From Leptolyngbya sp. FACHB-321 (GTDB lineage: Bacteria; Cyanobacteriota; Cyanobacteriia; Leptolyngbyales; Leptolyngbyaceae): a DNA stretch of 64,000 nucleotides. The notes beneath the pieces were generated by a model. It was not told the DNA's origin. It did not search any database and worked only from the letters and a program-made list of their open reading frames with translations. The stretch lies in contig NZ_JACJPI010000064.1 in the NCBI RefSeq assembly GCF_014695975.1, forward strand, positions 124,001 through 188,000, given 5' to 3'. Both the position numbers and the translations under genes were made by a program. The first letter of the stretch is position 1; every line of letters begins with the position of its first letter. Below are positions 16,342-58,152 of the stretch, piece after piece.

Positions 16342-16368
16342 TACATTTGTATCAACGAGGTGTGTGCC

Positions 16369-17565: not shown

Positions 17566-17732
17566 GCGACTAATCTTTTTGTTTTCTGAGCCAAAGAGCC
17601 CATTGCTCTGCCACTACAGAAGCTTACGGTGTAAGCACCTTATTCAAGATGTTGCCTGTCTTACAGGTTAGGAATTTCTAGCAATTTGTGCATTAGGAAT
17701 AGCAATTCTCTTATCAAAATACTAGGTCTCTT

Positions 17733-18476
17733 ATGAACAATAACTCCTTTCTACACCTTCCCAGTCCCTATTTGCTCGCTCCTACAAGTCGATCACAATT
17801 GCAGCCAACTTGGCGATCAAATTTTCAGCTGCTGATACAGGTGTTAGAACGCCTGTCAGACCCGGATCTTAACCGACCGCTCTTAGGAACAGATACTGAA
17901 AAGAGTTTGCTAATATACCAGCAACTTGTTGTTGGGCAGTTTTTTCGGCAAAACATCAACGCCAAATTCCCCTTTTACAAAGCATCTTCTAAAAGTTTTG
18001 AGGCATGGCTTCAACCTGAAGTTACTTTGTGGAAAAAGTTACTGCTAATGCTTGAGGAACTCTCTAGGAGGAAAAATTTTCATAGCGAAGCTCCTGCACT
18101 CATTTTCTACAAGCTTATAAAGGAGAGATTGTTGCTGCTGTTCATTGCTCCTCATGGCTACGAAGAGGGTATAGCAGTGAAAGATTTTTTTGCTCAATTA
18201 CAATCTCAAAACGCTCAGTTACGAAGCTGTGAAAATCCTTTCGATCGCGAGGCTGTCCCGACTACCTGGGAAGTAATCAATCAAGCTGTGAAAATAGCTG
18301 ATTTAGACGATGCATTTAGAAAAGAAATTTACAGGCCATATGTGCAAGCAAGGCAAAGCTTTGTAACTAGGCTAATCGATGAACGATCTAGGATTTACGT
18401 TGGCGACACGCTACAGCGACAGGGCAGAAGAAAGAAGAAGAAAGATAAACCTACCTCTAAAACGACTTCTCCATAA
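17733..18476 (+). CDS. Unknown protein of the integrative element
   Basis: 247 residues, not recognised. It is soluble and mostly helical, with Trp/Phe-rich segments in the middle (KSFEAWLQPEVTLWKKLLLML) and a very basic tail (RQGRRKKKKDK) that may bind nucleic acid. It lies between the integrase and the small DNA-binding protein, so a role in replication or regulation of the element is plausible. Its base composition is more AT-rich than the chromosomal genes upstream. Confidence 0.55.
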   Translation: MNNNSFLHLPSPYLLAPTSRSQLQPTWRSNFQLLIQVLERLSDPDLNRPLLGTDTEKSLLIYQQLVVGQFFRQNINAKFPFYKASSKSFEAWLQPEVTLWKKLLLMLEELSRRKNFHSEAPALIFYKLIKERLLLLFIAPHGYEEGIAVKDFFAQLQSQNAQLRSCENPFDREAVPTTWEVINQAVKIADLDDAFRKEIYRPYVQARQSFVTRLIDERSRIYVGDTLQRQGRRKKKKDKPTSKTTSP

Positions 18477-18503
18477 GCTTTTCAGAGGAAAAGTCGTTTT
18501 CAT
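18461..18503 (+). terminator. Hairpin overlapping the end of the preceding gene
   Basis: AAAACGACTTCTCC and GGAAAAGTCGTTTT pair in 13 of 14 positions and the second arm ends in TTTT. It covers the stop codon of the unknown gene at 18476 and probably ends the early transcript. Confidence 0.55.
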
Positions 18504-18559
18504 GTTGCTCAGACAAACAGCTCTTATCGTTGGGGTAGAAAAGACAACTACGTACTCCA

Positions 18560-18847
18560 ATGGTAAATTTCGTGAAAGGTCGGCGATTGTCAGAGTTAAC
18601 TGGAATTTCTGCTTCAACCTTTAAGCAATACCGTTTAGGAAGCAAGCAGAGAAATACTCAACCCATTTGGCAGGAAGGCATTCACTGGCAACGGGTTAAT
18701 CAACGGCTAACACTATATAACTTGCCCTTAATTCTCGACTGGATCGCCAATCGAGCAAACCCTCTGGAACACCAGCGAGCGATCGAAACTTACTTGACTT
18801 CGCTCCCCTCTAATCAACCCCAAAAGCGCGGTCGGAGGGTTAGCTGA
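18560..18847 (+). CDS. Small DNA-binding protein (excisionase-like)
   Basis: 95 residues. The first part, GRRLSELTGISASTFKQYR, reads as a MerR/Xis-type winged-helix start (helix-turn-helix then a wing), followed by IHWQRVNQRLTLYNLPLILDWI and a basic tail. It overlaps the primase gene by one base (TGATG), so the two are translationally coupled. A clear paralogue lies at 56232-56618. Likely an excisionase or replication regulator of the element; which one cannot be told from sequence. Confidence 0.65.
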   Translation: MVNFVKGRRLSELTGISASTFKQYRLGSKQRNTQPIWQEGIHWQRVNQRLTLYNLPLILDWIANRANPLEHQRAIETYLTSLPSNQPQKRGRRVS

Positions 18848-21519
18848 TGAATTCAAAAAGCGAAAGCGATCGCGGGGTGGACTCTCACGATCGCTCAGTT
18901 CATCATGAATCGATTCAATCTCATTGTACTCAGCCCTCTGCCAAATCGCTAACGCAAGCCCACTGTAAAGAGTTAGAAGCCAGTGGACTTAGTGAAGAGC
19001 AGATCAAAAAAGTAGGTCATTTCTCAGTCGACGCAACGACTGCTAAAAAGCTAATGGGAATCGCCCTGCCAGGGTTAATCTTTCCGTACAATGACCCATT
19101 CAATAGACCCTATCTTAAGAAGGATGGCCAACCCTATTACCGATTTAAACCGAACTGGGGAACGCGTAAAACTGAGGAAAGTCCCAAATATCTGAGTCCT
19201 ACACGTGAGGGTTGCCGTCCTTATTTTTCTCCCCTGTATCCCAACTGGGCGAAAGTGCTCAATTCAACCAAAACTGACCTCTGGGAAACCGAGGGAGAGA
19301 AAAAAGCAGACTGTGGCTGTGCTAATGGTTTGCCTGTAATCGCCTTTGCCGGTGTTGACGCTTGGGTTGATCGGTACGATCGCGAAACAGGCCACAAGCT
19401 AGACACCTCTCGTTTATTGCCTGAACTAACAGTTATCAACTGGGCAACGCGGCGAGTGAACCAGTGTTTTGATTCAGACATTATCGAGAAAATACCTGTT
19501 CAGTTAGCTTTAGCGAAACGAGCTAGAGTACTCAAGCAAGATGGAGCTATCCCTTATCTCATTCTGTTACCAAATGAGGTAGATGGGTCCAAAAACGGGT
19601 TGGATGATTTTGTCATCAGACATGGCATTGAGGCACTCAAGGTTTTAGCAAAAGCGGCAAAGCCTACGCCAGTAAAAATAGAAGAACACGAGGTTAAGGA
19701 TGCACAGGGCAACAAGCAAAAGAAATATTCTTGCTCTCTCACTTTAGAAGAACCGCAAAGCCATCTAAAAGCATTGGTGGCGTGGGCAGTCCTGAAAGAA
19801 CGGTGGGCGCTTCGACCGGGTATCGGTTGGTACGAATGGCAAGGAACGCACTGGAAAGTAGGGCTATCCGATGAGTTTGAGGCAGACTTGACCCGCTTTA
19901 TGGATGCTCAGCACTGGCAGAAACGGAGTTCTGGTCTGATGACTTCTGTCGTGAGAGAACTGCGATCGCGACTTCTGGTGCGTGACCAAGATTGGAGTTC
20001 CTCCAGCAAAGTCGCCTTTCAAAATGGGACGTTAGAGCTTGATTCGGAGAAATTTATCCCAACGCACAACCCACTTGATCGGCTCACCCGCCTACGTCCT
20101 TATGCGTTTGATGCCTTGGCGCAATGTCCAACCTGGCTCAGCTTCCTTGCTGAAGCAATGGAGAGTGATGAGGAACGGGTGCAACTAATCCGGGCGATCT
20201 TCCGTTATGCCGTCTTGCCCAGAGCCCGCGATCGTAAAGCTGAAATTGAGAAGTCCTTCGACTTTTTTGGACAGAAGGGGACGGGTAAGGGGACAACACT
20301 AGAGGTCTTAACGAGTCTTGTTGGCTCTGAAAATATTGGCCCTGCCAGCGTTGACACATTCAAAAACCCTGTGGGTCATGGGCAGTTAGTTGATAAGGAC
20401 GTAGCCATTGATTACGATGCGTCGGGGAGTCTAAGCAACACCGGTAACTACAACAAAGTGGTTAGTAATGAGCCTGTGGAAGTGAAAAAGCTGTTTCGAG
20501 ACACTTGCACAACTCGGTTAGGCGTGGTTGTGATCAGAGCCTATAACGCCTTTATCGAGGTTCCCGATGGTTCTGAAGGACTGGATCGGCGGCTAACGAT
20601 CATCCCGTTTCGAAAACAACCCAAGGTTATTGATACTGGACTATCCCAAAAGCTGGAGGCAGAATTACCAGGCATCTTTGCCTGGTGTTACTCGATGTCT
20701 GCCAGCGAGATGAAACAACGGCTCTTAACAGCGGGTACGATTCAGGCTGTGGCAGCCATGAATATCGAACGCTTTGAAGCCAATAACCCTGAATTTAGAT
20801 TTCTGTGTACTGTCTTCCCGGAAGGTAAAGCAAGGATCAAAGCGGGGGATGTCTACAGCAGTTATACACACTGGTGTAGAGAAAACCAGCATCAACCCAA
20901 AAGCTCAGTTAAATTTGCGCCCGCGATTCAGGCATTAGGGTGTACGCGGTCTAAAGGGAAGCGCCACGGGAATTATTACTACACCATTCCCGCAATGGCT
21001 GCTTTTGATGTTGAGGCTCATCTGGGGATAGTTCAGAGACGTTTAGGAGACAGTTGTCGAGACAGCTCAAACCCTTGTACAGAGAGGGAAGGGGATAGTT
21101 GGGGACAGTTTAAGCCTCAAAGTTTACAGAATCTTGGTGAAGCAAAATTGAAGGCTAATGGGAATGAGTATGAGCAAAAAGCAAGAATACCTCCCTTTCA
21201 AGTGTCCCCAACTATCCCCCAGCCTTGCTCAGAAGGGATTTCAACTGTCTCCCAACTGTCTAAAACTGTCTCTCAACTATCTCAAACTGTCTCAACTACT
21301 CCTCAATTGCTAACTACAAAAGCTATTGAAGAAACCACAACTGACGAGCCCGTTAACTGTTCTAGGCCCATAGCTGTGGGTGATCAGGTTCGAAAGCGTC
21401 ATAGGTATGGATGGGTTGGAACTGTTCAAGCCATCCAAGACACTGTAGCAGAGGTGTTGTGGGTTAATGACTCTCAGCCAACTTTAGTGGAATTATCAGA
21501 ATTGGAGGTCAAAAGATGA
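18847..21519 (+). CDS. Primase-helicase replication protein (DUF3854 plus SF3 helicase)
   Basis: 890 residues. The N-terminal half holds a DUF3854/TOPRIM-like region with WETEGEKKADCG (about 146-157) and an aspartate-containing AFAGVDAW. The C-terminal half is a D5/P4-type superfamily 3 helicase with Walker A FGQKGTGKGTT (about 474-484), an acidic Walker B-like VAIDYDASGS and the sensor segment EGLDRRLTIIPFRK. This is the replication initiator family of cyanobacterial plasmids and integrative elements. Residues about 790-830 are a low-complexity linker with repeated TVSQLS units. It overlaps the methylase downstream by 4 bases. Confidence 0.85.
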   Translation: MNSKSESDRGVDSHDRSVHHESIQSHCTQPSAKSLTQAHCKELEASGLSEEQIKKVGHFSVDATTAKKLMGIALPGLIFPYNDPFNRPYLKKDGQPYYRFKPNWGTRKTEESPKYLSPTREGCRPYFSPLYPNWAKVLNSTKTDLWETEGEKKADCGCANGLPVIAFAGVDAWVDRYDRETGHKLDTSRLLPELTVINWATRRVNQCFDSDIIEKIPVQLALAKRARVLKQDGAIPYLILLPNEVDGSKNGLDDFVIRHGIEALKVLAKAAKPTPVKIEEHEVKDAQGNKQKKYSCSLTLEEPQSHLKALVAWAVLKERWALRPGIGWYEWQGTHWKVGLSDEFEADLTRFMDAQHWQKRSSGLMTSVVRELRSRLLVRDQDWSSSSKVAFQNGTLELDSEKFIPTHNPLDRLTRLRPYAFDALAQCPTWLSFLAEAMESDEERVQLIRAIFRYAVLPRARDRKAEIEKSFDFFGQKGTGKGTTLEVLTSLVGSENIGPASVDTFKNPVGHGQLVDKDVAIDYDASGSLSNTGNYNKVVSNEPVEVKKLFRDTCTTRLGVVVIRAYNAFIEVPDGSEGLDRRLTIIPFRKQPKVIDTGLSQKLEAELPGIFAWCYSMSASEMKQRLLTAGTIQAVAAMNIERFEANNPEFRFLCTVFPEGKARIKAGDVYSSYTHWCRENQHQPKSSVKFAPAIQALGCTRSKGKRHGNYYYTIPAMAAFDVEAHLGIVQRRLGDSCRDSSNPCTEREGDSWGQFKPQSLQNLGEAKLKANGNEYEQKARIPPFQVSPTIPQPCSEGISTVSQLSKTVSQLSQTVSTTPQLLTTKAIEETTTDEPVNCSRPIAVGDQVRKRHRYGWVGTVQAIQDTVAEVLWVNDSQPTLVELSELEVKR

Positions 21520-22031
21520 CGCATGTCGACAGTATTCACAGCAGCAGCAGCCAAGAATGGTTCACTCCTGCAATCTATGTAGAGGCTGTTCGAAGAGTTT
21601 TAAAGAATATTGATTTCGATCCAGCAAGTTGCCCAAAAGCGCAGGCAACAATCAAGGCAGATCGATATAAGACTTTAACTGATAATGGGCTTGAACATCC
21701 TTGGGATGGGCGTGTATTCGTCAATCCACCTTATGGCAAAACTGGGTCACAAAGTAACCAGGCAATTTGGAGCCGTAAGATGGTTCAGGAATATGAGGCA
21801 GGCAACCTGACTGAAGGCATACTCCTTGTTAATGCTCAAACGGCTGAGAAATGGTTTCAACCTCTTTGGCATTACACTATCTGCTTTACTGATCATCGTA
21901 TTAAGTTTGTAAGCCCAGTCGGGGAGCCGAAGCAGCCAACTCACGGTAATGCCTTTGTCTATTTTGGTCCTCACACTGATCTGTTTGGTGAAATTTTTAG
22001 TCAGTTTGGAAGAATTGTGAAGCCGAAGTAG
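21516..22031 (+). CDS. dam: Phage-type DNA N6-adenine methyltransferase (Dam family)
   Basis: 171 residues, the usual length of the phage N-6-adenine-methyltransferase family (PF05869). The catalytic motif is NPPYGKTG (about 70-77), preceded by EWFTPAIYVEAV and FDPASCP, which form the AdoMet pocket. It overlaps the primase stop by 4 bases, so it belongs to the element's replication operon. In phages and satellites such enzymes methylate the element's own DNA, probably at GATC. No matching endonuclease is adjacent. Confidence 0.85.
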   Translation: MTHVDSIHSSSSQEWFTPAIYVEAVRRVLKNIDFDPASCPKAQATIKADRYKTLTDNGLEHPWDGRVFVNPPYGKTGSQSNQAIWSRKMVQEYEAGNLTEGILLVNAQTAEKWFQPLWHYTICFTDHRIKFVSPVGEPKQPTHGNAFVYFGPHTDLFGEIFSQFGRIVKPK

Positions 22032-35033: not shown

Positions 35034-36755
35034 ATGCCAACCAAAATCCACGGTGCCGAATATCCCATCGAGAAAATCTTCTGTGATGACTTTGTATTCT
35101 CAATTCCCCTATATCAGCGCCCTTACGCCTGGGAAATTGAGCAGGCAGAAGCTCTACTCGATGATCTGCTGGATTTTTTGGGAGACAGCAACATTCCTAT
35201 CGATCAACTCAGCCCCTACTTTCTAGGCAGTATTGTTCTCATCAAGTCAAACGATTCTACTAAAGCCGAGGTTGTCGATGGACAGCAGCGCCTGACAACC
35301 CTCACCATTCTCCTGTCCGTTTTGCGAGAAGCTGTTCCAGAAGAAGTTGCCAAGGCCTTAACTGCTTATCTGTACGAGAAAGGCAACGTTATTAGAGCAA
35401 CCCCAAACCGCTATCGGCTGACTCTACGAGATCGAGACGCACAATTTTTTCGTGAGCACATCCAGGACGAGGGAGGGCTTAGCAAATTAGCCAAACTGAA
35501 GGATGCTATTCTCCCCGATAGTCAAGCTCGCATCCGCGATAACGCCCTGCATTTACTCAAGCTCTTACAGAAGCTGCCAGAGCATCAGTGTATCCGGTTA
35601 ACTCAATTCGTTATTACAGGCTGCCTGCTAGTTGTCGTCTCTACCCCCGATATGGACTCGGCCTATCGCATCTTCTCCGTTCTCAATGATCGCGGTTTAG
35701 ACCTGTCCCATTCTGACATCCTTAAATCCGAAATTATCGGCAGGATCCCCAAAGATCAGCAAGAGCAGTACAACAGGCGTTGGGAAGACACTGAAGTTAT
35801 GCTAGGGCGCAATAATTTTCAAGGCTTGTTCTCCCACATTCGGATGATTCATCTCAAAGCCAAGCAAAAAGATTCAGTCCTCAAAGAAGTGCGGGACCGC
35901 GTTAAGCCCAGTGAAAACCCGATCCACTTTATCGATGCAGTACTGTGCCCAGCAGCCGAAGCTTATGCCGATATTCAAGACTGTTGCTACGAAGGCCACC
36001 AGCACGCCGAAGCCATCAACATCTACTTCAAGTACCTGAACCGCATCGATAATGCTGATTGGTTGCCGCCTGCGATCGCCTACCTGTCTAAATATCGCCA
36101 CCAGCCAGCGCAACTGCTCACGTTTTTCAAAGATCTAGATCGCCTAGCCGCTGGCCTCATGATCCAACGATCCGACATCAACGAGCGGATACGGCGCTAC
36201 AGTACCCTTCTAGAGTGGATTGAGCACGACCAAGACTTAAGTAGTCCTGATTCGCCCTTAAATCTAGCAGCAGAAGAATGCAAGGCAATTATTCAGCGGT
36301 TGAATGGTCCCCTATATCTAGATACTAAGATTCGCCTTTACGTACTCCTTCGCCTCGACACCTACCTTTCTGGTGGCGAAGCCGTTTACACCCTTCCTCG
36401 TATTACCGTTGAGCACATTCTTCCTCAGAATCCACCAAAGGACAGTCAGTGGCTAGGCTGGTTCCCTGACAAAGAAGCTCGACAGAACTATGTTCATCGT
36501 CTTGGTAACTTAGCGCTTCTATCGGGCTCCAAAAACAGCAGCGCCCAAAACTACGATTTCGACAAAAAGAAAAGCAAATATTTCACCGGCGCAGGGGGCG
36601 TTTCTCCCTTTGCTATAACCACTCAGGTGCTGCACACAACAGACTGGACTCCTGCAGTAATTGAACAGCGTCAGACTGAACTCGTAGGCCGATTAAAACA
36701 ACTCTGGCGATTGGACGAACCCGCCTCCGTGCCTCTGCCTGCGATCGTTGCCTAG
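35034..36755 (+). CDS. DUF262-DUF1524 nuclease (GmrSD/SspE-like type IV restriction protein)
   Basis: 573 residues. The N-terminal DUF262 (ParB/Srx-like NTPase) has the hallmark VVDGQQRLTTLTIL (about 80-93). The C-terminal DUF1524 is an HNH nuclease with ITVEHILPQNP (about 457-467) and NYVHRLGNLALLSGSKN. GmrSD cuts glucosylated hydroxymethylcytosine DNA, and SspE uses the same two domains to sense phosphorothioate marks and nick DNA. Here it is a second, modification-directed layer inside DISARM. Which modification it reads cannot be told from sequence. Confidence 0.85.
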   Translation: MPTKIHGAEYPIEKIFCDDFVFSIPLYQRPYAWEIEQAEALLDDLLDFLGDSNIPIDQLSPYFLGSIVLIKSNDSTKAEVVDGQQRLTTLTILLSVLREAVPEEVAKALTAYLYEKGNVIRATPNRYRLTLRDRDAQFFREHIQDEGGLSKLAKLKDAILPDSQARIRDNALHLLKLLQKLPEHQCIRLTQFVITGCLLVVVSTPDMDSAYRIFSVLNDRGLDLSHSDILKSEIIGRIPKDQQEQYNRRWEDTEVMLGRNNFQGLFSHIRMIHLKAKQKDSVLKEVRDRVKPSENPIHFIDAVLCPAAEAYADIQDCCYEGHQHAEAINIYFKYLNRIDNADWLPPAIAYLSKYRHQPAQLLTFFKDLDRLAAGLMIQRSDINERIRRYSTLLEWIEHDQDLSSPDSPLNLAAEECKAIIQRLNGPLYLDTKIRLYVLLRLDTYLSGGEAVYTLPRITVEHILPQNPPKDSQWLGWFPDKEARQNYVHRLGNLALLSGSKNSSAQNYDFDKKKSKYFTGAGGVSPFAITTQVLHTTDWTPAVIEQRQTELVGRLKQLWRLDEPASVPLPAIVA

Positions 36756-47497: not shown

Positions 47498-47887
47498 ATG
47501 CCCGAACAACCCTACCAACCGATCGGTCTTGCTGAGTTAATTCAACAGGTCAAGCAGGAACTACTTTCAACTGTGCCTGGAAAAGCGAAAGAGGCTCCCA
47601 TTCTCTTTGTGAGCGGGGTAGAAGTGGAGGCTCAGGTAACCGTTAAGCGAGAGGGCAAAGCCGGTATCAAAATTGATGTCCTCTCGGTAGGCGGCGGCGA
47701 GCTAGGTGGCGGCATCAGTCGGGATGATGTCCATAAGGTGAAAGTCACCTTGTCTCCCTTATTTGACAAGGAGCGGCTGCTGGAGTTTTACCAGGCTTTA
47801 CAGCCTGATCAGGTGCCTGTGGCAGTGAAGCAGAGTTTAGAGGCACTCCTCAAAGGTGAAGAAGGCGAACTGGCAGACCAGTTTTAA
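47498..47887 (+). CDS. Trypco2-like (trypsin-co-occurring domain) small protein
   Basis: 129 residues. IGLAELIQQVKQELLS at the start and EAQVTVKREGKAGIKIDVLS followed by VHKVKVTLSPLFD match the Trypco2 domain, a small alpha+beta domain found next to trypsin-like or CHAT/caspase-like effectors in NTP-dependent conflict systems. The C-terminus is an acidic helix. First gene of the CHAT operon, 28 bases before the CHAT gene. Family role is unproven; it probably acts as an adaptor or signal receptor. Confidence 0.7.
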   Translation: MPEQPYQPIGLAELIQQVKQELLSTVPGKAKEAPILFVSGVEVEAQVTVKREGKAGIKIDVLSVGGGELGGGISRDDVHKVKVTLSPLFDKERLLEFYQALQPDQVPVAVKQSLEALLKGEEGELADQF

Positions 47888-47915
47888 CCGTCCTCAATAG
47901 ACAGAGAGGAACGAC

Positions 47916-49421
47916 ATGGAACTGCTAGAGCTTTATCTCTCTCCGCTAGATGCCCAACGCTTTCAGGCGATCGCAACCCGTTTACCCATTGGGATTGGTG
48001 ATGCTGCAACCGAGTGTGTCTTACCATTCTGGGTCGGTGAGCAAGACTGGCGAAGAACCATTATCAAGGTGCTGGAGAGTAGCCAGGGCTTTCGTGCAGA
48101 ACACTACCCTGAACCTGATGAGCAGGCTTGGCTGAAGCAGGAGGAGTTGCTGTTACCCGATCGCCAAAGCTTTCATGCTGCCTATCTAGAACGAATTGGA
48201 CAGTCCCTTTACCACTCGCTGTTTCCGCCAGATAGCGAGATCAAGCAAGCCTTCCTACACTCCTTACGATTAGCCGAGCAGCACAACACCGATTTGCATT
48301 TGCGACTGAAGTTTGCAGCGGATTCTGTCCAGCGATCGCGCTTGGCAGACTATCCTTGGGAACTGATCCATGATGGTCAGCGGTTTTTACAGCCTCGTCA
48401 GGTTATCGTGTCTCGTTACATTGCCTATGAAGCTTTACCACCTGCGCTTCTGCCCCAGAAACAGTTGCGAGTTTTATTGATCGCGCCTCGGGTTGAAGAT
48501 GCCACTCAGAAATTAGCAAAGCTTTCGGATACTGAACAACAAGCTATTCATCTCGGTCTGAGCAAGGCAAAGGCAGAGGGTTTAGCTGTGCTGGAGTCTC
48601 TATCAAAGGCAACCCTCAAGGCACTGAGTGCTGACCTGTCTCAACGGACTGAAACTCAGATGCCACAGGTGCTGCATTTTGATGGTCATGGACTATTCGG
48701 TAAGCGATGTGTCAACTCACAGTGTGGGCAAATCCATGCTGGTATCAAGGTCGATCGCTGTCGAAACTGTGGTCAATTACTTACAGAACCGACGGGATTT
48801 CTCCTCTTTGAAGATGAGCAGGGTGGACCCGATTACGTCAGTGCTGCGTCACTGGTAGCTTTTCTACCCAAGGGAGTGGCGCTGGTAGTGCTTAGTGCCT
48901 GCCAGTCGGGGATGGCAGTTGCTGGGGATTCGGTGTTTAACGGGACGGCACAACAACTGATCGATGCCAGGGTTCCGGCAGTGGTGGCGATGCAATATGG
49001 GGTGAGAGTGGATGCAGTCAGTCGGTTTGCGGAGCAGTTTTACCGCATACTAGGGCAGAAGAAGCCCCTGGTAACGGCTCTCAATGAAGGGCGAAAATGG
49101 ATGGGAGTGGAGGGAAATCAATGGTACCGTCCTGTTCTGTATCTACGTTGGTTGGATAATCAGGGGGGGCAATTGTTTGCCGAGACAGCAACGGTAGAGC
49201 CGCTTCAAGTCAAGCTAAGCCGTTTTCAAAGATTCGAAATAGAGCGACTGCAAGTGGAATTGGAGGATCTGGATCAAGACTATGAGAGCGTCAAGGCGCA
49301 GTTGCGGGTAGAGCTAGACGCTCCGACGCAAAATAAGTTAGAACGCCAAATTGAGCAGATTGGGCGACAGATGGATACCAAAGAGCAACAGTTATTTCGG
49401 CTAAAGCAACAGGATGAGTAA
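47916..49421 (+). CDS. CHAT-domain caspase-like protease with zinc-ribbon insert and coiled-coil tail
   Basis: 501 residues. The CHAT domain has its catalytic His in LHFDGHGLFG (about H257) and Cys in VVLSACQSGMA (about C328). Between them, CVNSQC and CRNC (about 264-284) form a zinc-ribbon-like insert. The last 60 residues are a charged coiled coil (ELEDLDQDYESVKAQLR) that reappears at the start of the next protein. CHAT proteases are effectors of bacterial cell-death and defence systems. It overlaps the next gene by 8 bases. Intact catalytic pair, so probably active. Confidence 0.85.
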   Translation: MELLELYLSPLDAQRFQAIATRLPIGIGDAATECVLPFWVGEQDWRRTIIKVLESSQGFRAEHYPEPDEQAWLKQEELLLPDRQSFHAAYLERIGQSLYHSLFPPDSEIKQAFLHSLRLAEQHNTDLHLRLKFAADSVQRSRLADYPWELIHDGQRFLQPRQVIVSRYIAYEALPPALLPQKQLRVLLIAPRVEDATQKLAKLSDTEQQAIHLGLSKAKAEGLAVLESLSKATLKALSADLSQRTETQMPQVLHFDGHGLFGKRCVNSQCGQIHAGIKVDRCRNCGQLLTEPTGFLLFEDEQGGPDYVSAASLVAFLPKGVALVVLSACQSGMAVAGDSVFNGTAQQLIDARVPAVVAMQYGVRVDAVSRFAEQFYRILGQKKPLVTALNEGRKWMGVEGNQWYRPVLYLRWLDNQGGQLFAETATVEPLQVKLSRFQRFEIERLQVELEDLDQDYESVKAQLRVELDAPTQNKLERQIEQIGRQMDTKEQQLFRLKQQDE

Positions 49422-50826
49422 CGACCCTCTGCTCGACTTTTATCAAACCGAATTGGATGACCTGGAGCAAGACTACACGAAAGTCAAGGAGCAGCTACGG
49501 GTTGAGCAAGATGGTCCGACGCAAAATAAGTTAGAACGCCAAATTGAGCAGATTGGGCGACAGATGGATGAATGTCAACAGAAAATTGATCAACGTCAAG
49601 CTGATCGCCAACGCCAGGTAGCCCAGATTGCTCTAGACACATTGATCAGTATTCTTAAAAGCGATGAAGCTCAGCTTGAGTTAATAATCCAGGCGTATCA
49701 AAAAACTGTTAGCCATTGGCCCGTTCCAGTGCGCTTGGAGGCAAATACAGTCGAGACCATCATCAACGAGTTGGAAAGAATAGCCCGAGGTCAATCATCC
49801 TATACCGCTCGGGACGAATTTATCGCGCACGTTGTCCATCAGACTTCAGCCCCATTCCTGTCTAATGCCCTTAATCAATGGAGTGTTCAATATCGAGCAG
49901 GGGTTGACTGGCTCCAACTCCATACACAAATCCAAGCGGCTCAAGACAAGCGCTTAGAGACTGCTGAACCCGCTATCTTAATGTCTATCACCCGCTGTGA
50001 TGAAGTCTCTACTCAGACTCAAGAGGATGCAACCTATTATCAAATCAATGCGTGGCTGATCGAAGATATTGAGACGTACCGATCGCGAAAAACGGGTTAT
50101 CACTCTCTGCTGGCTACCAATTCTCTAGAGTCTGCACCCTACCTGTTGGAGGAACTGCTGCCCAAAATAACTCATCTACTGAATCACTTTTTAGCTGAAC
50201 AGAGGCGTCTCTGCGATTTCTGTGAAAACTATCCCCAGATCCATGTCTTTCTGCCACTGGAACTGATGCACCTGGGTGTCGATCTATGGCCACACTTAAA
50301 TCCAGAAAACACTAGCCGTCGAGAATATTTAGGACACGACCACATAGTCGTTATTCGTTGCGCCAATCGCTACGATCGCAATTACAGAAAAAGTCCAAGC
50401 TGGCTGAAGTTGTGGAAACGACACCAGGGCTTATTGCAAGAGTCTGCCAAGGATGTTTTTGTACTGGGTCATGATCATGACCTGGATGAACTCATGGATG
50501 TTCTGGATGCGGCTGTGCAGCCAGCCAGCAACGTTGTAGGATTGCATGTTACTCAGGTACCCCTGAATACAGAGGATCTGTTTTATGAACTTTTAGACTC
50601 GGGCTTACCACTCGCGATCTGGCCGCGCCGTAATTTGACAGACAATGCCTATGAAACCGCAATGGCAGATTTGCTAGCGACTTGTTGTTTAGAGAGGTTA
50701 CCCCATACAGTGAAAGACAAACGATATGAAACTCGTAGACGACAGAATGCCCCAGACTGCCACATCGGACATCATTTGTCCCTCTTGTGGGATGACCCCT
50801 ATTTAGTGCCTCCTAAATCCGCCTGA
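49414..50826 (+). CDS. VMAP-like protein (vWA-MoxR-associated) with adaptor coiled coil
   Basis: 470 residues. Residues 5-70 are the coiled coil shared with the CHAT protein. A helical effector-associated-like region follows (about 72-150, DTLISILKSDEAQLELIIQA). The C-terminal part fits VMAP-C: VFLPLELMHLGVDLWP (about 277-292), HDHIVVIRCANRYDRNY and LPLAIWPRRNLTD. In ternary systems described for NTP-dependent conflict, VMAP links the MoxR/vWA switch to an effector by shared adaptor domains. Here that effector would be the CHAT protein. 12 bases separate it from moxR. Confidence 0.75.
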   Translation: MSNDPLLDFYQTELDDLEQDYTKVKEQLRVEQDGPTQNKLERQIEQIGRQMDECQQKIDQRQADRQRQVAQIALDTLISILKSDEAQLELIIQAYQKTVSHWPVPVRLEANTVETIINELERIARGQSSYTARDEFIAHVVHQTSAPFLSNALNQWSVQYRAGVDWLQLHTQIQAAQDKRLETAEPAILMSITRCDEVSTQTQEDATYYQINAWLIEDIETYRSRKTGYHSLLATNSLESAPYLLEELLPKITHLLNHFLAEQRRLCDFCENYPQIHVFLPLELMHLGVDLWPHLNPENTSRREYLGHDHIVVIRCANRYDRNYRKSPSWLKLWKRHQGLLQESAKDVFVLGHDHDLDELMDVLDAAVQPASNVVGLHVTQVPLNTEDLFYELLDSGLPLAIWPRRNLTDNAYETAMADLLATCCLERLPHTVKDKRYETRRRQNAPDCHIGHHLSLLWDDPYLVPPKSA

Positions 50827-50838
50827 GTTCAGAGCCGC

Positions 50839-51936
50839 ATGAGTAACCTACCCGAAGACTGGAAGCTGTTTCAGGGGGATAACCGAGCACCCCATGACGC
50901 GATCGGCACCTTGCCCGATGCCCCACCCTGGCGACCCTTTGGCAAAGACCCAAACCCTGGTGTTAGTCGCCGTAAACGTCGGGGTGAAACCTTTCAGTCG
51001 CAGTCAGAAGAGGTTGCTATGGTCAATGCGGCACTGTACTTGCGGCGGCCACTGCTGATTACGGGCAAACCGGGTACGGGTAAGTCGTCACTGGCGTATG
51101 CCGTGGCTCATGAGCTAAAGCTGGGGGAGGTGCTCTACTGGCCAATTACGACCCGCACCACCCTTAAAGATGGGCTTTATACCTACGATGCTATTGGTCG
51201 TTTACAAGAGGTCAAGCAATCGGAAACGAGAGGGGACTATACCGAAGACCCGCAAAAAATCGCGGATTACATTACTCTGGGGCCGCTGGGAACGGCCCTA
51301 TTGGAGTCATCGCGTCCCCGCGTGCTGATTATTGATGAAATCGACAAAAGTGATATTGACCTGCCCAACGATCTGCTGACGATTTTTGAAGAAGGTCGGT
51401 TTGAAATTCCGGAGCTGGGGCGACTAGAAAAAGAGAGTGACGACCCGGAGCAGAAATCAGTCTCCATCACGGTTAAGGTTCGCACGGACTATACGGATGA
51501 GACCGAACATACTTACGCTGAGAAGAAGGTCACAATTAAGGGAGGACGAATTACCTGTCAAGAGTTTCCCCTAGTGATCCTTACTAGCAACGGGGAACGC
51601 GATTTCCCCCCGGCTTTCTTGCGCCGGTGCTTGCGTCTGAATATGCGCGACCCCGATCGCGTCCAATTAGAACGCATCATTCAAGCCCATCTCGAACATT
51701 GCAATCTGTCAGAAAGCCAAGTGAGCGATTTAATTGACCGTTTTCTGAAAAGTCGCGATAAGAGCCGGGAGCAGCTTTCGACCGATCAACTGCTAAATGC
51801 CCTATTCATGATTGTCCGCCAGCGCGACTGGGTGGGTGACGAAAAAGAGAGCTTGCTGGATTATCTGTTAGCACCGTTGGATCGCCCCCTAGAGGTTAAA
51901 TCCAAAGATCGTTCACCTAAGTCTCCAGCCCAATGA
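50839..51936 (+). CDS. MoxR-family AAA+ ATPase
   Basis: 365 residues. Walker A TGKPGTGKSSLAYA (about 75-88), Walker B VLIIDEIDKSDIDLPNDLL (about 161-179), sensor 1 VILTSNGERDFPPAF and arginine-finger region LRRCLRLNMR. MoxR ATPases act as chaperone-like switches with vWA proteins, which matches the next gene. It overlaps that gene by 4 bases. The insert FEIPELGRLEKESDDPEQKS between Walker B and sensor 1 is longer than usual. Confidence 0.88.
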   Translation: MSNLPEDWKLFQGDNRAPHDAIGTLPDAPPWRPFGKDPNPGVSRRKRRGETFQSQSEEVAMVNAALYLRRPLLITGKPGTGKSSLAYAVAHELKLGEVLYWPITTRTTLKDGLYTYDAIGRLQEVKQSETRGDYTEDPQKIADYITLGPLGTALLESSRPRVLIIDEIDKSDIDLPNDLLTIFEEGRFEIPELGRLEKESDDPEQKSVSITVKVRTDYTDETEHTYAEKKVTIKGGRITCQEFPLVILTSNGERDFPPAFLRRCLRLNMRDPDRVQLERIIQAHLEHCNLSESQVSDLIDRFLKSRDKSREQLSTDQLLNALFMIVRQRDWVGDEKESLLDYLLAPLDRPLEVKSKDRSPKSPAQ

Positions 51937-53297
51937 TTAGTCGCCTGATCACCATCCTGCAGGAATCAGAGTTGCTGCTGAGCGATCAGGAGATTGAGTC
52001 TTTTAGTGAGGTGCAACCTTTACTGAACGACGAAGACATTGCAGATGCGCTCTGGTTAGCGTCTAAGATTGGCAGTGCCTATAAGGTCAGCGAGCCAGCC
52101 GCTATCAAAGCGGTCAGCGAATCAGATGATGCGATCGCGATTGAGGTGATTGATGATAACACCGTTGTAGTCGCGCCCTCACCCATGGTCTCTGCTTATA
52201 TGCCCCCGGCGGCGAAGTCTGACAATGGATCGATGGAAACTCCAGAATTGGGCTTACCCATCCAAGTCCAAGCGGCTCCAGCTCTGGCTCATCCTCGTGA
52301 GATTAGTCGATCGCTGCGTCCTTTGCTGCGGAAGGTGCCGTCGTTGACGCGATCGGAGCTAGATGAAAGCGCCACTGTGAATCGCATTGCTGAACGAGGC
52401 ATCTGGTTACCCATTCTTAAGCCTTCACCTGAGCGCTGGTTTGACCTGGAGCTGGTGATTGAGGCTTCCAAGTTTAGCTTTATTTGGCAGGAAACCCTGG
52501 ATGAATTTCAACAGTTACTGGAAGGACAGGGAGCTTTCCGCAATGTACGCACCTGGACTGTCAAAGAGGCGGCTACGGGGCAACCGCAGTTAGTAGCCAA
52601 GCGACAGCAGGGCACAGGTATAGAGCAAGACCAGCCATTACGGAGTCCTAAAGAACTGGTCGATGCCTCTGGACGGCGATTAGTGTTGTTCTTGAGTGAT
52701 TGTCGTTCTCGCCTGTGGCAGCAGGGGCAAATCCATGACTGGTTGACCCTTTGGAGCCAGCATGGGCCAGCCGCGATCGTGCAACTGCTGCCCGAACGAT
52801 TGTGGAGCCAAAGCGAACTGGATGTCGGGTTTGCGGTACAGGTGGGCTCCTTGATGCCAGGTGCACCAAATTCAAAGCTGCAAATCAGAGAATTGCCTGC
52901 TCGTACCGAAATTGCGCCTGCGGATACGTTAACAGTGCCGCTCGTCACTCTGACTGCAGAGGCGTTGAAGCAGTGGGCGCTAGTGGTTGCGGCGGCCGGG
53001 CGGCAGCGATCGCCAGCACGCTTGTTTGACTTGTCCTGGGTCAGCGATCCAGAACGCGATCAAGCGATGGCTGTTATCCAACCGCAATCTGCTAAGGAAC
53101 GGGTAGAACTTTTTATGGCGACGGCCTCTCTGCTGGCCCAACGGCTAGCCTGCATGATGGCAGCCGTACCCGTAGAACTACCCGTGGTGCATCTAATTCA
53201 GCAAGAACTTTTGCCAGAGGTGCAGTCGGTTCATATTGCTGAAGTCTATACCAGTAGTCTGTTAGAAGAAGTTAGGCCAAACCGCGGACGGCTCTAA
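51933..53297 (+). CDS. SAV_2336 N-terminal-related protein (vWA-like partner of MoxR)
   Basis: 454 residues. A variable first third is followed by SLRPLLRKVPSLTRSELDES and a vWA-like Rossmann region with RRLVLFLSDCRSRLW (about 248-262), which stands where a MIDAS motif would be but is degenerate. Then WLTLWSQHGPAAIVQLLPE and VVLNL-like strands. This is the arrangement of SAV_2336-type proteins that accompany MoxR ATPases. Metal binding is doubtful because DxSxS is not conserved. It overlaps its neighbours by 4 bases and 1 base. Confidence 0.7.
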   Translation: MISRLITILQESELLLSDQEIESFSEVQPLLNDEDIADALWLASKIGSAYKVSEPAAIKAVSESDDAIAIEVIDDNTVVVAPSPMVSAYMPPAAKSDNGSMETPELGLPIQVQAAPALAHPREISRSLRPLLRKVPSLTRSELDESATVNRIAERGIWLPILKPSPERWFDLELVIEASKFSFIWQETLDEFQQLLEGQGAFRNVRTWTVKEAATGQPQLVAKRQQGTGIEQDQPLRSPKELVDASGRRLVLFLSDCRSRLWQQGQIHDWLTLWSQHGPAAIVQLLPERLWSQSELDVGFAVQVGSLMPGAPNSKLQIRELPARTEIAPADTLTVPLVTLTAEALKQWALVVAAAGRQRSPARLFDLSWVSDPERDQAMAVIQPQSAKERVELFMATASLLAQRLACMMAAVPVELPVVHLIQQELLPEVQSVHIAEVYTSSLLEEVRPNRGRL

Positions 53298-54352
53298 TGG
53301 GATATAACCTGCAAGCCAAAATTGAGGGTAAACGCCTGACTCCGAATGCAGCAATCGTCCGCTTCAAAGGCTCAGACAACCTGAAGTTGGATGATATCGA
53401 GAAGAAGCGATCGCAACTCCTGACCACTCACTCTCTGAACGTTATTAGCGTTTATGGTCAACCTGGTGAAATCGTTGTCACCGTTGCCCGTCCCCAGCGC
53501 CAAACGATTTCTCTACGCGAAGTGTGGGCAAAACGAAAAATCAATCGATCGCCTTCTGGCATCAACCTCAGTTTTGTGATTGGCGTTAAGGAAATCGATG
53601 GCGAACTGCTCTACCTCAATCTAAGCAGTAGTTTTGAGAACTTGGAACAGCACGCTCCTCACACGCTGATCGCTGGTGCCACGGGCAGCGGAAAGTCCGT
53701 TCTACTGCAAAACCTCCTTCTTGATATTTGTGCTACTAACTCTCCCAAGCTGGCAAGCATCTATTTAATCGATCCCAAAATGGGCGTTGATTACGCCAAC
53801 ATCAGTGACCTACCCCATCTCAAAGAAGGCATCATTATTGAGCAAGAGCGTGCGATTGAGGTTTTGGAGTTTCTCGTTGAGGAGATGGATAACCGATACC
53901 GGAAGTTTCTGCCTCACAAAGCAAAATCTTTGCAGGACTACAACTGTAAGGTGCCTGAGCAGGACAGGCTCCCAGTATTGTGGCTAGTACATGATGAGTT
54001 TGCTGAATGGATGCTAATCGATGAATATAAAGCTGCTGTCTCCTCTGCCGTGCAGCGCTTAGGTGTGAAGGCAAGAGCAGCAGGAATTTATCTTATCTTT
54101 GCAGCACAGCGTCCTGATGCAAACGTTCTTCCAGTACAGCTTAGGGATAATTTAGGCAATCGCCTGATCCTCAGAGTCGAAAGCATTGGCACTTCAGAAA
54201 TCTCACTTGGACAAAAAGGCGCGGAACACCTTTTAGGCAAAGGACATTTAGCGGCTCGACTCACCAATCAATCTACTCTCATTTATGCTCAAGTCCCATT
54301 TCTTTCGGATGAAGACATGACTGCCGTAGCAGAAATCATCAAACAGCAGTGA
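53297..54352 (+). CDS. Short FtsK/SpoIIIE-type DNA translocase
   Basis: 351 residues. The N-terminus is a small beta domain; the RecA-like motor has Walker A IAGATGSGKSVLLQ (about 124-137), IYLIDPKMGVDYANI, Walker B LPVLWLVHDEFAEWM and LIFAAQRPDANVLP. There are no membrane helices and no C-terminal gamma (KOPS-reading) winged helix, so it is not chromosomal FtsK. It is closer to the HerA/FtsK motors of defence systems such as DptH. It overlaps the vWA-like gene by one base, so it belongs to the operon. Confidence 0.85.
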   Translation: MGYNLQAKIEGKRLTPNAAIVRFKGSDNLKLDDIEKKRSQLLTTHSLNVISVYGQPGEIVVTVARPQRQTISLREVWAKRKINRSPSGINLSFVIGVKEIDGELLYLNLSSSFENLEQHAPHTLIAGATGSGKSVLLQNLLLDICATNSPKLASIYLIDPKMGVDYANISDLPHLKEGIIIEQERAIEVLEFLVEEMDNRYRKFLPHKAKSLQDYNCKVPEQDRLPVLWLVHDEFAEWMLIDEYKAAVSSAVQRLGVKARAAGIYLIFAAQRPDANVLPVQLRDNLGNRLILRVESIGTSEISLGQKGAEHLLGKGHLAARLTNQSTLIYAQVPFLSDEDMTAVAEIIKQQ

Positions 54353-54390
54353 TCAAGCCCCGAAATCTTTACTGACTTATAATTTTGGGC

Positions 54391-55578
54391 ATGAGCAGGC
54401 AAGAAAACGTTTCTCCCCAAAAGTCTATTTACCTGGACTATCACGCGACTACACCCACAGATCCACGAGTTGCCAGTTTAATGCTGCGCTACATGATCGA
54501 AGAATTCGGCAATGCCAGTAGCGTAGATCATGAGTGGGGAGATCGCGCTGAAGATGCAATTAAACAAGCCGCTAAAAATGTTGCTGCTTTGATTGGAGCC
54601 TCACCTAGGGAAATCATTTGGACTTCTGGCGCGACTGAAAGCATCAACCTGGCAATTCAAGGTAGTCTTCCCTCCAACCCTGAAAAGCCTCACCGAATCG
54701 CATTGTTACCGCTCGAACACAAAGCGGTTCTTGACACCTGCCAAGCGTTTGAAAAGCGAGGCTGGGCAGAACTGATCTATATTCAAGTCGATTCCAAAGG
54801 CAGACTCGACCTTAATCATCTAGAGCAAGTCTGTATGGAGGGGGTGTCCCTGCTCTGCGTCATGGCTGCCAACAATGAAATTGGCAATGTCTATCCCATC
54901 CAAAAGATCGGACAGATTGCTCAGCGCTGTGGTATTCCTTTCCTCTGCGATGGCTCTCAGGCAGTGGGCAAAATTCCCATCCAATTTGAGGAGTGGGGCA
55001 TCACTTATCTAGCTCTTTCCGCCCATAAGCTCTACGGACCCAAAGGAGTTGGAGCCTTGGTTGTTCGCAAGGGTCACTATCTCGAACCTTTGCTGTTTGG
55101 CGGTGGTCATCAGCAGGGAATGCGATCGGGCACCTTCAATATTCCTGGCATTGTCGGGTTGGGAGAGGCTTGTCGTTTACGATCGCTGGAGATGGAGGAA
55201 GATGAGCGGGCAATAGCTACTAAACGAGACAGGCTCCAGGCTCTCTTATTAGAAAGAACTCCTGAATTAGTGGTGAATGGCGACACTACCCATCGATTAG
55301 CTGGTAATCTCCATATCTCTGTTCCTGGTATTCCTAACAGCGCTGTTGTTGCGAGAGTACGCCATCGTCTTGCGATCTCAACAGGTTCAGCATGTTCATC
55401 TGGCGTTGAATCACCTTCTCATGTTCTTCAGACACTTCGCTTGCCAGAGGTTATCGTAGATGGAGCACTCCGAATTGGGCTAGGAAAGTTTACTACAGAA
55501 GAAGAAATGAATGGTGCTGCTGTAATTCTCTCTGAAGCTGTTGCCCAGATTCAGCAGGTTCTCTACGCCATGTCTTAG
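54391..55578 (+). CDS. DndA/IscS-type cysteine desulfurase
   Basis: 395 residues. PLP enzyme that moves sulfur from cysteine to an active-site Cys: YLDYHATTPTDPRV at the N-terminus, PLP Lys in LSAHKLYGPKGVG (about K213), catalytic Cys in STGSACSSGVESPS (about C335). In phosphorothioation systems the DndA/SspA desulfurase supplies sulfur to DndC/SspB-D; no such acceptor lies in this window. It sits 38 bases after the FtsK gene on the same strand. The ATG at 54391 is preferred over an upstream TTG. It could also be a housekeeping-type enzyme captured by the operon. Confidence 0.85.
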   Translation: MSRQENVSPQKSIYLDYHATTPTDPRVASLMLRYMIEEFGNASSVDHEWGDRAEDAIKQAAKNVAALIGASPREIIWTSGATESINLAIQGSLPSNPEKPHRIALLPLEHKAVLDTCQAFEKRGWAELIYIQVDSKGRLDLNHLEQVCMEGVSLLCVMAANNEIGNVYPIQKIGQIAQRCGIPFLCDGSQAVGKIPIQFEEWGITYLALSAHKLYGPKGVGALVVRKGHYLEPLLFGGGHQQGMRSGTFNIPGIVGLGEACRLRSLEMEEDERAIATKRDRLQALLLERTPELVVNGDTTHRLAGNLHISVPGIPNSAVVARVRHRLAISTGSACSSGVESPSHVLQTLRLPEVIVDGALRIGLGKFTTEEEMNGAAVILSEAVAQIQQVLYAMS

Positions 55579-56231: not shown

Positions 56232-56618
56232 ATGAGCAATTTCGACTTGCCAGCTAGGGCAAAGGCTAAAGACGCAAGATTTTCAGCGACAACTCAAAAT
56301 GGCACGAGACCAAGAGTAAAGAGGCGATCGAAGCCGATTCGGCGCAAGTACGATTTAGATTTTCAGCAAACTGCTGAGTTTGTTGATAAGTGGGGTGCTG
56401 CACAGCTAACTGGGCCCAGTCCTGAAACTCTCAAAAAGTACAGGCTTAGTGGTCTGTTAATTGAGGATATTTACTGGGTTCGAATTAACTCCAAAGCCCT
56501 ACGCTATAACGCAAAGCTTCTAGTCGATTGGCTCCGAAACCATGGGAATCCCCGAGCCCACGAGCAAATAGTTGAACTTTATCTAGCAGCTAGCCCAGCA
56601 AACGGACGGAAGACCTAA
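56232..56618 (+). CDS. Second small DNA-binding protein, paralogue of the one at 18560
   Basis: 128 residues with a basic N-terminus (RPRVKRRSKPIRRKYDLDF). The rest aligns with the protein at 18560: TGPSPETLKKYRLSG against TGISASTFKQYRLGS, IYWVRINSKALRYNAKLLVD against IHWQRVNQRLTLYNLPLILD, and GNPRAHEQIVELYLA against ANPLEHQRAIETYLT. It is thus another excisionase-like or element-regulator protein. It faces the broken integrase, so it belonged to a second, related element. Confidence 0.65.
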   Translation: MSNFDLPARAKAKDARFSATTQNGTRPRVKRRSKPIRRKYDLDFQQTAEFVDKWGAAQLTGPSPETLKKYRLSGLLIEDIYWVRINSKALRYNAKLLVDWLRNHGNPRAHEQIVELYLAASPANGRKT

Positions 56619-56625
56619 ATCTGCG

Positions 56626-56660
56626 ACTAGCCTCCTCAATGATTGGGGAGGCTAGTTTTT
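56626..56660 (+). terminator. Intrinsic terminator after the second small DNA-binding gene
   Basis: ACTAGCCTCC and GGAGGCTAGT form a 10-bp stem with a 10-base loop, followed by TTTTT. It lies 8 bases past the stop codon and between convergent genes. Confidence 0.75.
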
Positions 56661-57155
56661 CAAGTAAGCAGTTTTGAGAAAGATTTTTCAAACACTGCTT
56701 ACCGAGGTTGAGTATTGTGTTTCCAACCAGTTGACTGCTTTATCAGTCTTTTCTCGGCTTGTTAGCTGGCTGTAAGTGCGATCGGACTCTCTAACTGAAT
56801 GCCCAATCATTTCAGCCAGAGCTTCGTCCTGCTCACGATTGCCATATTTAAGCTGCCATGTGATTGCTATTCGTCGGAAATCATGGGGAGAAGTCCGTTT
56901 GGGTTCGCCAAATAGGTGACCTGTGGCTGTGTACATTGTCCGAACGACGACATCTCCCAACCTAGATCCTTCGTAGGGTTCACCAAAGTTTTCAATCGTG
57001 CGGAGATTGAGCCTGAGGAAAACCCGCTTGTGATTAAGTTTCACCTTTGGTCGCCAAGTATTCAACCATTCATCTAAATCGTCGGTCAGTATTGGGGGAA
57101 GACGGAATTCTCTTTCCCTCCCTGTTTTGCGTCCTGTCTTGTGATCTTCTGGTTT

Positions 57156-57361
57156 AACGTGAGTTCGGGTTAAGCCGAAGGCTAAAACCCCTACTATGAA
57201 TAGCTTGAGTTAAGTAGCCAGCCAGTCACCCTTTCTCAATAAGACCTGCTACTGCAAGTATTTGCAACTGTGAGACTTATTGACAAGAACTTGACCGAGA
57301 GCGTGGTGGCAAGCCGCAGAAAATCAGGGCTTCTAGCGATTCCTTATCCCGAACTCACGTT
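57156..57361. mobile_element. 206-bp MITE-like element with 14-bp terminal inverted repeats
   Basis: Begins AACGTGAGTTCGGG and ends with its exact reverse complement. Flanked by GGTTT on both sides (57151-57155 and 57362-57366) as target duplication. It has no ORF. Excising it together with one GGTTT rejoins the integrase codons ...KLK-PEDHK in frame, which proves insertion. The parental transposase family is not certain. Confidence 0.8.
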
Positions 57362-57407
57362 GGTTTAAGTTTCATGACATAGCCATCGGGTTCCCTAAAT
57401 AAAGTTC

Positions 57408-57448
57408 GGTCCACTTCTAACTCAGAGAGTTAGAAGTGGACCGAACAG
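57408..57448. repeat. Perfect 41-bp palindromic hairpin (19-bp arms)
   Basis: TTCGGTCCACTTCTAACTC, loop AGA, then GAGTTAGAAGTGGACCGAA. The second arm (read on the plus strand) is genuine integrase sequence in neither orientation outside this spot except the arm next to 57408; the other looks like an inverted copy of it made during a deletion. It could also act as a terminator. Confidence 0.55.
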
Positions 57449-58152
57449 GGCAATAAGTCAGAATTGCGATCAGCAAATATCGCTGCCAGTTCTGCATTAT
57501 GGCTGTTTCAAGACGTTTTGGCCCTGCAATAGATCTACTGTTACCTACCCTCTTCTAGGAGCACAACACCGCCTTAAGTAGCGGGTAACCTTAATACACT
57601 GTTCTAAAGTTATGAGCTTCTCTTCAAGTGCCTCTTTTGAAGTTGTCCGTCGAGGCTCTTTTCTATGCTTCTGTGAGAGTTCATTCAGTAGCGATCGAAT
57701 GACTTCAACCTCCTTAATGTTCTTGTATTTAGTGGTCTGAGATCTTCGGTAATGCTGCCATTTCGCAACGTTGAGAGCAGTTGCACCAAATAAGATTGCC
57801 CAACCATAACTGTTACCTCGATCGTTTATGCCCCAAGCGATGAATTCATCTAGCCACTCACGATCTGCAATCAGTTCAATCTTTAGCTCATCAAATGGCC
57901 AATCTTCAACATGGTGTAACCATCCTAAGAAACAGAGGATGTGGTACCTATAGGGTTTTGCAGTACTTTCTCGAACAGGTGAATCCTGCCGCTTAGGAAT
58001 TTCGAGAGCAGTCAAGAATCGATAGAATTTATCCAATTGCTCGCGCAAGCTGGGAGTCAAATCTGATTCTTTAAGGGCATAGGGTTTGGCAGAATATTGC
58101 CTTCGACCTTTTCTCTGTTTCGTAAGGTCAAAGCCTAGGTTCTGTTGACATT

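What the first reader, a model, noticed from the sequence alone, without database searches (positions are those of the whole stretch)
53297..55578. Cysteine desulfurase paired with an FtsK-type ATPase but without DndC/SspB partners
DNA phosphorothioation needs a desulfurase plus a PAPS-reductase-like activator (DndC) or the Ssp nickases. None is in the window. The desulfurase could serve a new sulfur acceptor (DNA, tRNA or one of the operon proteins), or rely on DndC elsewhere. The DUF262-DUF1524 protein 18 kb upstream belongs to the family of SspE, which reads phosphorothioate, so a functional link is conceivable.
Basis: inference. Interest (0 to 1): 0.6.

Follow-up and report, generated by a model that had tools for sequence, protein, structure and literature searches.

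The report
Orphaned tail of a phosphorothioation locus
The odd pairing of a DNA-pump ATPase with a sulfur-mobilising enzyme is not a new sulfur pathway but the surviving 3' end of a known DNA-phosphorothioate defence locus (sspBCD-sspFGH-sspA), joined by recombination to an unrelated defence operon whose own effector it cut off; no machinery for adding sulfur to DNA was found in this genome.

Summary
In detail: an FtsK-type ATPase (53297-54352) and a cysteine desulfurase (54385-55578) with no DndC/SspBCD partner, neither in the window nor found elsewhere in the 97%-complete genome. The new-sulfur-acceptor interpretation is not supported. The FtsK protein is the last 351 residues of SspH (about 1,780 aa). 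In six other cyanobacterial genomes the same domain (67-93% identical) ends a full-length SspH, with this same desulfurase (SspA) downstream. A maximum-likelihood tree puts the desulfurase with phosphorothioation-locus enzymes, apart from the host's housekeeping IscS-like paralogues. Homology to the ssp parent starts at 53279. Homology to the other parent, a VMAP-MoxR-SAV_2336 conflict operon in two congeners, stops at 53283, inside the SAV_2336 gene. That gene has lost the 465-655 residues carrying its effector. The desulfurase is also a mosaic: its first ~60 codons are ssp-like, the rest resembles the desulfurase of a type-4 BREX locus. So this is a chimeric relic of defence-island turnover. 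Both ORFs are intact, and a window-specific T-to-A change creates an overlapping stop/start (TAATG), so reuse of FtsK as a replacement effector remains possible (about 0.3). Interest is modest.

The parts
53297..54352 (+). FtsK-type ATPase ORF, the C-terminal 351 aa of SspH now read as a separate protein from an ATG that overlaps the preceding stop (TAATG)
   Evidence: PADLOC SspH PDLC02806 positions 1419-1766, 1e-197; 92-93% aa identity to the last 351 residues of full-length SspH in G012 and G319; dN/dS 0.03-0.06
54385..55578 (+). SspA-type cysteine desulfurase, intact; mosaic: about the first 60 codons ssp-like, remainder closest to the desulfurase of the G035 type-4 BREX locus
   Evidence: Pfam/NCBIfam; tree; sliding identity and informative-site run
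53279..53283 (.). Recombination junction: last bases shared with the SAV_2336 operon parent and first bases shared with the sspH parent (AAAC microhomology)
   Evidence: blastn ends at 53283 against L073 and L074 and begins at 53279 against L021 and L023
51933..53297 (+). SAV_2336-type component of a VMAP-MoxR ternary conflict operon, truncated: 454 aa against 917-1105 aa in congeners, C-terminal effector part lost
   Evidence: NCBIfam NF041121; alignment with G036 and G034 proteins
50839..51936 (+). MoxR-type AAA+ ATPase of the ternary operon
   Evidence: AAA_5; 90-93% identical to G034 and G036 MoxR
49414..50826 (+). VMAP protein with N-terminal EAD9
   Evidence: VMAP-C 1.6e-33, VMAP-M1, EAD9
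47916..49421 (+). CHAT peptidase with C-terminal EAD9
   Evidence: CHAT 6e-22, EAD9 1e-9
47498..47887 (+). Trypco2 protein, first gene of the ternary operon
   Evidence: Trypco2 2.5e-17

Best explanation
The FtsK ATPase and the desulfurase are the 3' end (SspH C-terminal domain plus SspA) of a DNA-phosphorothioation defence locus of the type sspBCD-sspFGH-sspA. An illegitimate recombination at 53279-53283 joined this 3' end, out of frame, to the SAV_2336 gene of a trypco2-CHAT-VMAP-MoxR-SAV_2336 conflict operon, deleting that gene's C-terminal effector half and all of ssp upstream of the FtsK domain. Shown by sequence: both parents, the junction, the losses, the intact ORFs, and the failure to find SspC, SspD, DndC or BrxL in the genome. 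Inferred: the desulfurase can still make a protein persulfide but has no SspD/DndC to accept sulfur for DNA, so no phosphorothioate is made. The FtsK domain can still bind ATP but lacks SspF, SspG and the first ~1,430 residues of SspH, so SspFGH-type restriction does not occur. Most likely the pair is a recent relic of defence-island turnover, with the desulfurase at most a redundant cellular desulfurase.
For: FtsK = SspH C-terminus. The close homologue is the end of a 1774-1815-codon open frame in all five intact genomes found by search (G012, G319, G334, G159, G045), and of an intact SspH in Phormidium tenue L067. SspA lies downstream of SspH in every one of these. In P. tenue and MS004 (MS004 and G334 appear to be one genome) the alignment to the window runs through FtsK, the short gap and the desulfurase without interruption (2151 and 2218 columns). 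G003 holds an intermediate decay state: sspF 3' end, sspG 5' end, deletion, then the FtsK domain and desulfurase. Congeners G036 and G034 stay alignable with each other beyond the junction point while the window switches to sspH. No SspD, SspC, DndC-like or BrxL match in the genome, with positive controls. Tree places the desulfurase in the PT/BREX-4 clade at 100/100, apart from both housekeeping clades of the same genera.
Against: Both ORFs are open and show no excess of amino-acid change (FtsK 8 unique residues, against 7 and 8 in two intact SspH), so decay cannot be seen directly. The TAATG overlap looks like usable translational coupling. The genome is 97% complete in 91 contigs, so a partner in a gap cannot be fully excluded; assembly error at the junction cannot be tested without reads.
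Confidence: 0.85

Rival explanations
1. Effector capture: the FtsK domain was recruited as the replacement effector of the VMAP-MoxR-SAV_2336 operon, translated by stop-start coupling right after the truncated SAV_2336 protein, and now acts on DNA when the ternary switch fires; the desulfurase came along as a passenger.
For: The junction falls where the effector part begins in relatives. Effectors of this component are repeatedly displaced, and FtsK domains are on the list of C-terminal effectors in these systems (PMC7159879). A T-to-A change unique to the window turns the SspH leucine codon (TTG/TTA) into ATG and at the same time closes the SAV_2336 frame with TAA. FtsK stays under the same constraint as intact SspH.
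Against: Single genome. FtsK is not fused in frame, as effectors of these systems are. Described FtsK effectors are predicted inactive, whereas this one keeps its Walker motifs. The coupling argument is post hoc, and most of the measured constraint predates the junction.
Confidence: 0.3
2. New sulfur system: the desulfurase hands sulfur to a new acceptor (DNA through another activator, tRNA, or a protein of the operon).
For: Intact catalytic motifs; PT-type rather than housekeeping phylogeny; PT-type desulfurases of this clade also sit on plasmids (Cyanobacterium HL-69, Synechocystis pSYSM).
Against: No SspD, DndC or BrxL match in the genome. The FtsK link is fully explained by SspH-SspA gene order. 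The operon upstream was joined by recombination and comes from loci without a desulfurase.
Confidence: 0.05
3. Assembly chimera: the junction at 53279-53283 is an artefact of joining two unrelated contigs.
For: The junction is unique to this genome and has only about 4-5 bp of shared sequence.
Against: It lies inside a 334 kb contig. Neither parent occurs elsewhere in the assembly (one SAV_2336 match, one FtsK match), so no long repeat could have misled the assembler. A similar truncation to the FtsK domain and desulfurase occurs independently in G003.
Confidence: 0.04

Closest known systems
SspABCD-SspFGH phosphorothioation defence (Vibrio anguillarum FF-93, PMC8092258)
   Same: SspH C-terminal FtsK domain and SspA-type desulfurase in conserved order; FtsK domain 67-93% identical to that of intact cyanobacterial loci
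   Different: SspB, C, D, F, G and about 1,430 residues of SspH are missing; nothing left to sulfurate DNA
VMAP-MoxR-vWA ternary conflict systems (PMC7159879)
   Same: Trypco2, CHAT-EAD9, EAD9-VMAP, MoxR and SAV_2336 component in one operon; MoxR 90-93% and SAV_2336 79-87% identical to congeners
   Different: The C-terminal effector part (trypsin and/or FGE-sulfatase in congeners) is deleted and replaced by a separate FtsK ORF
Type-4 BREX with cysteine desulfurase (PMC12839542)
   Same: Most of the desulfurase is closest (88%) to the last gene of an sspBCD-like/PglZ/BrxL locus in congener G035
   Different: No BrxL, PAPS reductase or SspC/BrxC-type match in this genome
HerA/FtsK capture systems (PMC10853773)
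   Same: An FtsK translocase domain shuffled between defence modules
   Different: Here the source (SspH) and junction are visible; the Orc/CDC6-plus-REase partners of those systems were not seen in the operon

Membership tests
SspABCD-SspFGH | SspD (PAPS-reductase-like sulfurtransferase) present | tested here: not met
   PDLC02782: no match in G000, match in all 5 control relatives; only PAPS_reduct protein is CysH
SspABCD-SspFGH | SspC and SspB present | tested here: not met
   SspC model absent in G000, found in G012, G034, G035; DNA of the whole locus (including sspB) matches G000 only at the FtsK domain; sspB protein model itself not searched genome-wide
SspABCD-SspFGH | SspF, SspG and full-length SspH present (each of the three genes needed for protection) | tested here: not met
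   Only 351 of about 1,780 SspH residues remain; no sspF or sspG DNA in the genome
SspABCD-SspFGH | Desulfurase of the PT-locus clade | tested here: met
   17-row clade with SspA/BREX-4-locus desulfurases, 100/100, excluding housekeeping paralogues
DNA phosphorothioation (any type) | Phosphorothioate in genomic DNA | not testable with these tools
   Needs LC-MS/MS or iodine cleavage
VMAP-MoxR ternary conflict system | VMAP-C, MoxR and vWA/SAV_2336 component in one operon | tested here: met
   that SAV_2336_NTERM is the vWA component is inferred from context, no vWA Pfam match
VMAP-MoxR ternary conflict system | Variable effector fused to the C-terminus of that component | tested here: not met
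   Protein ends at residue 454; congeners 917-1105 aa with FGE-sulfatase/trypsin
SspE (GmrSD at 35034-36755) | Best match to SspE models over full length | tested here: not met
   Orf5 686 bits; SspE 82 bits over residues 22-108 only
DndA equivalog (TIGR03235) | Score above 480 bits | tested here: not met
   329.8 bits; PADLOC DndA/SspA models are unspecific, scoring the host IscS-like protein 578 against 451

The most novel reading that the evidence does not exclude
An active DNA translocase domain from a phosphorothioation restriction complex has been captured as the new effector of a VMAP-MoxR conflict operon, caught shortly after the event, with a single base change providing both the stop of the old protein and the start of the new effector.
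Probability: 0.25. Interest if true: 0.55.

Novelty: new member of a known kind. Interest (0 to 1): 0.33.

Why it matters
It removes a tempting false lead (a desulfurase-FtsK pair as a new sulfur pathway). It also gives a base-resolved example of how defence islands recombine: two unrelated systems joined inside a gene at the boundary of the effector part, and a desulfurase gene that recombines between SspFGH and type-4 BREX loci. It warns that standalone SspH-like FtsK hits, and DndA/SspA labels from unspecific profiles, can be mistaken for working phosphorothioation systems.

Tried and rejected
DndC or SspD elsewhere in the genome: only CysH found. PADLOC DndA/SspA hit taken as proof of function: rejected, because the host housekeeping protein scores higher. 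A conserved standalone FtsK-desulfurase family: rejected, because every close FtsK outside the window and the decayed G003 locus is the end of a full-length SspH. TIGR03235 as a source of cyanobacterial DndA references: none of 386 genomes passes the cut-off, so an Agrobacterium DndA was used. The more distant FtsK proteins of the family (33-37%) show no SAV_2336, MoxR or desulfurase neighbours. Pure decay test by dN/dS: uninformative, because most divergence predates the junction.

Full report
What is there. Two adjacent plus-strand ORFs lie at the stated place: an FtsK/SpoIIIE ATPase of 351 aa (53297-54352) and a cysteine desulfurase of 397 aa (54385-55578). They follow an operon trypco2 (47498), CHAT-EAD9 (47916), EAD9-VMAP (49414), MoxR-type AAA+ (50839) and a SAV_2336-type protein (51933), which itself follows a DISARM cluster. 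The window is contig C61:124001-188000 of a 6.7 Mb cyanobacterial genome.

The FtsK protein is a piece of SspH. PADLOC's SspH model matches it over model positions 1419-1766 of 1766 (E 1e-197). In relatives the same domain, 92-93% identical, is the last 351 residues of a 1795- to 1799-codon open frame (G012, G319). G334, G159 and G045 likewise carry it in 1774- to 1815-codon frames (67-89% identical). In G012 that gene ends a complete sspB-sspC-sspD-(Uma2-like)-sspF-sspG-sspH run. Only the window and G003 lack the full gene. G003 is a decay intermediate: sspF 3' end, sspG 5' end, deletion, then FtsK and desulfurase.

The desulfurase is the SspA of that locus type. Every genome with full-length SspH has a close homologue of the window's desulfurase downstream of it. 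In Phormidium tenue FACHB-886 and cyanobacterium MS004 the window aligns without interruption through FtsK, the short intergenic gap and the desulfurase (2151 and 2218 columns). A maximum-likelihood tree of 41 desulfurases puts the window in a 17-member clade of SspFGH- and BREX-4-locus enzymes that includes an Agrobacterium SspA. That clade is separated at 100/100 from both housekeeping clades of the same genera, from E. coli IscS and from an Agrobacterium DndA (the DndA and Agrobacterium SspA branches are long, so their exact places are unsure). The profile label alone would not have shown it: PADLOC's DndA/SspA models score the host's IscS-like protein at 578 bits and the window's at 451.

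Both parents of the chimera are identified. Against G036 and G034, which carry the same MoxR-SAV_2336 genes, homology runs to 53283 and stops (86% and 79% DNA identity). Against sspH of G012 and G003, homology starts at 53279 (85% and 83%). G036 and G034 stay alignable with each other past this point. Their proteins are 1105 and 917 aa and end in FGE-sulfatase domains, in G036 preceded by a trypsin domain. The window protein is cut at 454 aa and ends in about four residues read from sspH DNA in the wrong frame. So the recombination removed the effector part of one system and everything but the tail of the other.

A second exchange. Within the desulfurase, the first ~60 codons resemble the ssp-locus genes and G034 (about 80-90% in the 60-base bins at 54440-54560, against 60-77% for G035). 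From about 54560 onward the gene is ~90% identical to the desulfurase that ends a type-4 BREX-like locus (sspBCD-like genes, PglZ, BrxL) in congener G035. A desulfurase in type-4 BREX is described in PMC12839542. The desulfurase thus appears to be shared, and recombined, between SspFGH and BREX-4 loci.

Partners are missing. The only PAPS_reduct protein of the genome is CysH; Pfam PF01507 does detect SspD. SspD and SspC models match the intact relatives and not this genome, the whole G012 ssp locus matches this genome only at the FtsK domain, and BrxL is absent. The genome is 97% complete in 91 contigs, so a gap is possible but unlikely to hide a linked locus of this size.

Mechanism. Shown: intact ORFs with conserved catalytic motifs, a 5-bp-scale junction, loss of partners. 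Inferred: the desulfurase can make a persulfide but has no DNA-sulfur acceptor, so no phosphorothioate is made. Deletion of any one of sspF, sspG or sspH abolishes protection in the Vibrio system (PMC8092258), so SspFGH-type restriction is not expected here. The most likely state is a relic. The main rival is effector capture: FtsK domains are among the variable effectors of VMAP ternary systems, in which effectors are repeatedly displaced (PMC7159879). One window-specific base change yields TAATG, stopping the SAV_2336 frame and starting FtsK. It is one of eight residues unique to the window among 351. Suggestive, but post hoc. dN/dS does not decide, because most divergence predates the junction.

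Verdict. The reading as a new sulfur system is not supported; the pair is a truncated member of a known kind, placed by recombination in a chimeric defence island.

Noticed in passing
L021/L022 (G012; 16846-17047, 18533-18649 and 20094 of the concatenation), L023 17706-17846 and 19475 (G003), L161 11102-11263 and 11998 (Synechocystis pSYSM): Duplicated 5' ends of the sspA gene (about codons 14-60) lie upstream of the full gene, separated by small cassettes (Uma2 genes, or a RelE/HigA pair), as if circular cassettes integrate by crossover in the sspA 5' end; the fragment ends lie close to the mosaic breakpoint of the window's desulfurase (~54550) and near a GCGATCGC-like site.
   Followed up: partly
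47498-53283: The ternary operon is itself mosaic: MoxR-SAV_2336 is 79-86% identical in DNA to congeners from 50761 on, but VMAP is only 34% identical in protein and carries EAD9 where congeners show none; CHAT and VMAP carry matching EAD9 domains.
   Followed up: partly
23466-46915: DISARM-type cluster: DrmD (23466), MmeI-like methylase (28381), DrmA (40741), DrmB (44214), DrmC (46112), with an ABC transporter, a GmrSD/Orf5 protein, an AAA_11/12 helicase and a Uma2 gene in between.
   Followed up: partly
16360-22031 and 56232-58060: Tyrosine integrase, DUF3854/D5_N protein and Dam methylase at the left and, on the minus strand at the right, ORFs that look like integrase fragments (no Pfam match): the island may sit in a mobile element.
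   Followed up: no
G034:C51 and G035:C3 (L077, L079, L093, L095): Cyanobacterial loci with sspBCD-like genes, a large 1827-aa protein (no Pfam or PADLOC match, G034), a 1588-aa protein that reads like NERD-kinase-PglZ, BrxL and a terminal desulfurase: type-4 BREX-like loci.
   Followed up: partly
PADLOC PDLC02657 and PDLC02759: The DndA and SspA models score housekeeping IscS-like proteins higher than a PT-locus desulfurase (578 against 451 bits), so a hit alone does not indicate a phosphorothioation enzyme.
   Followed up: yes
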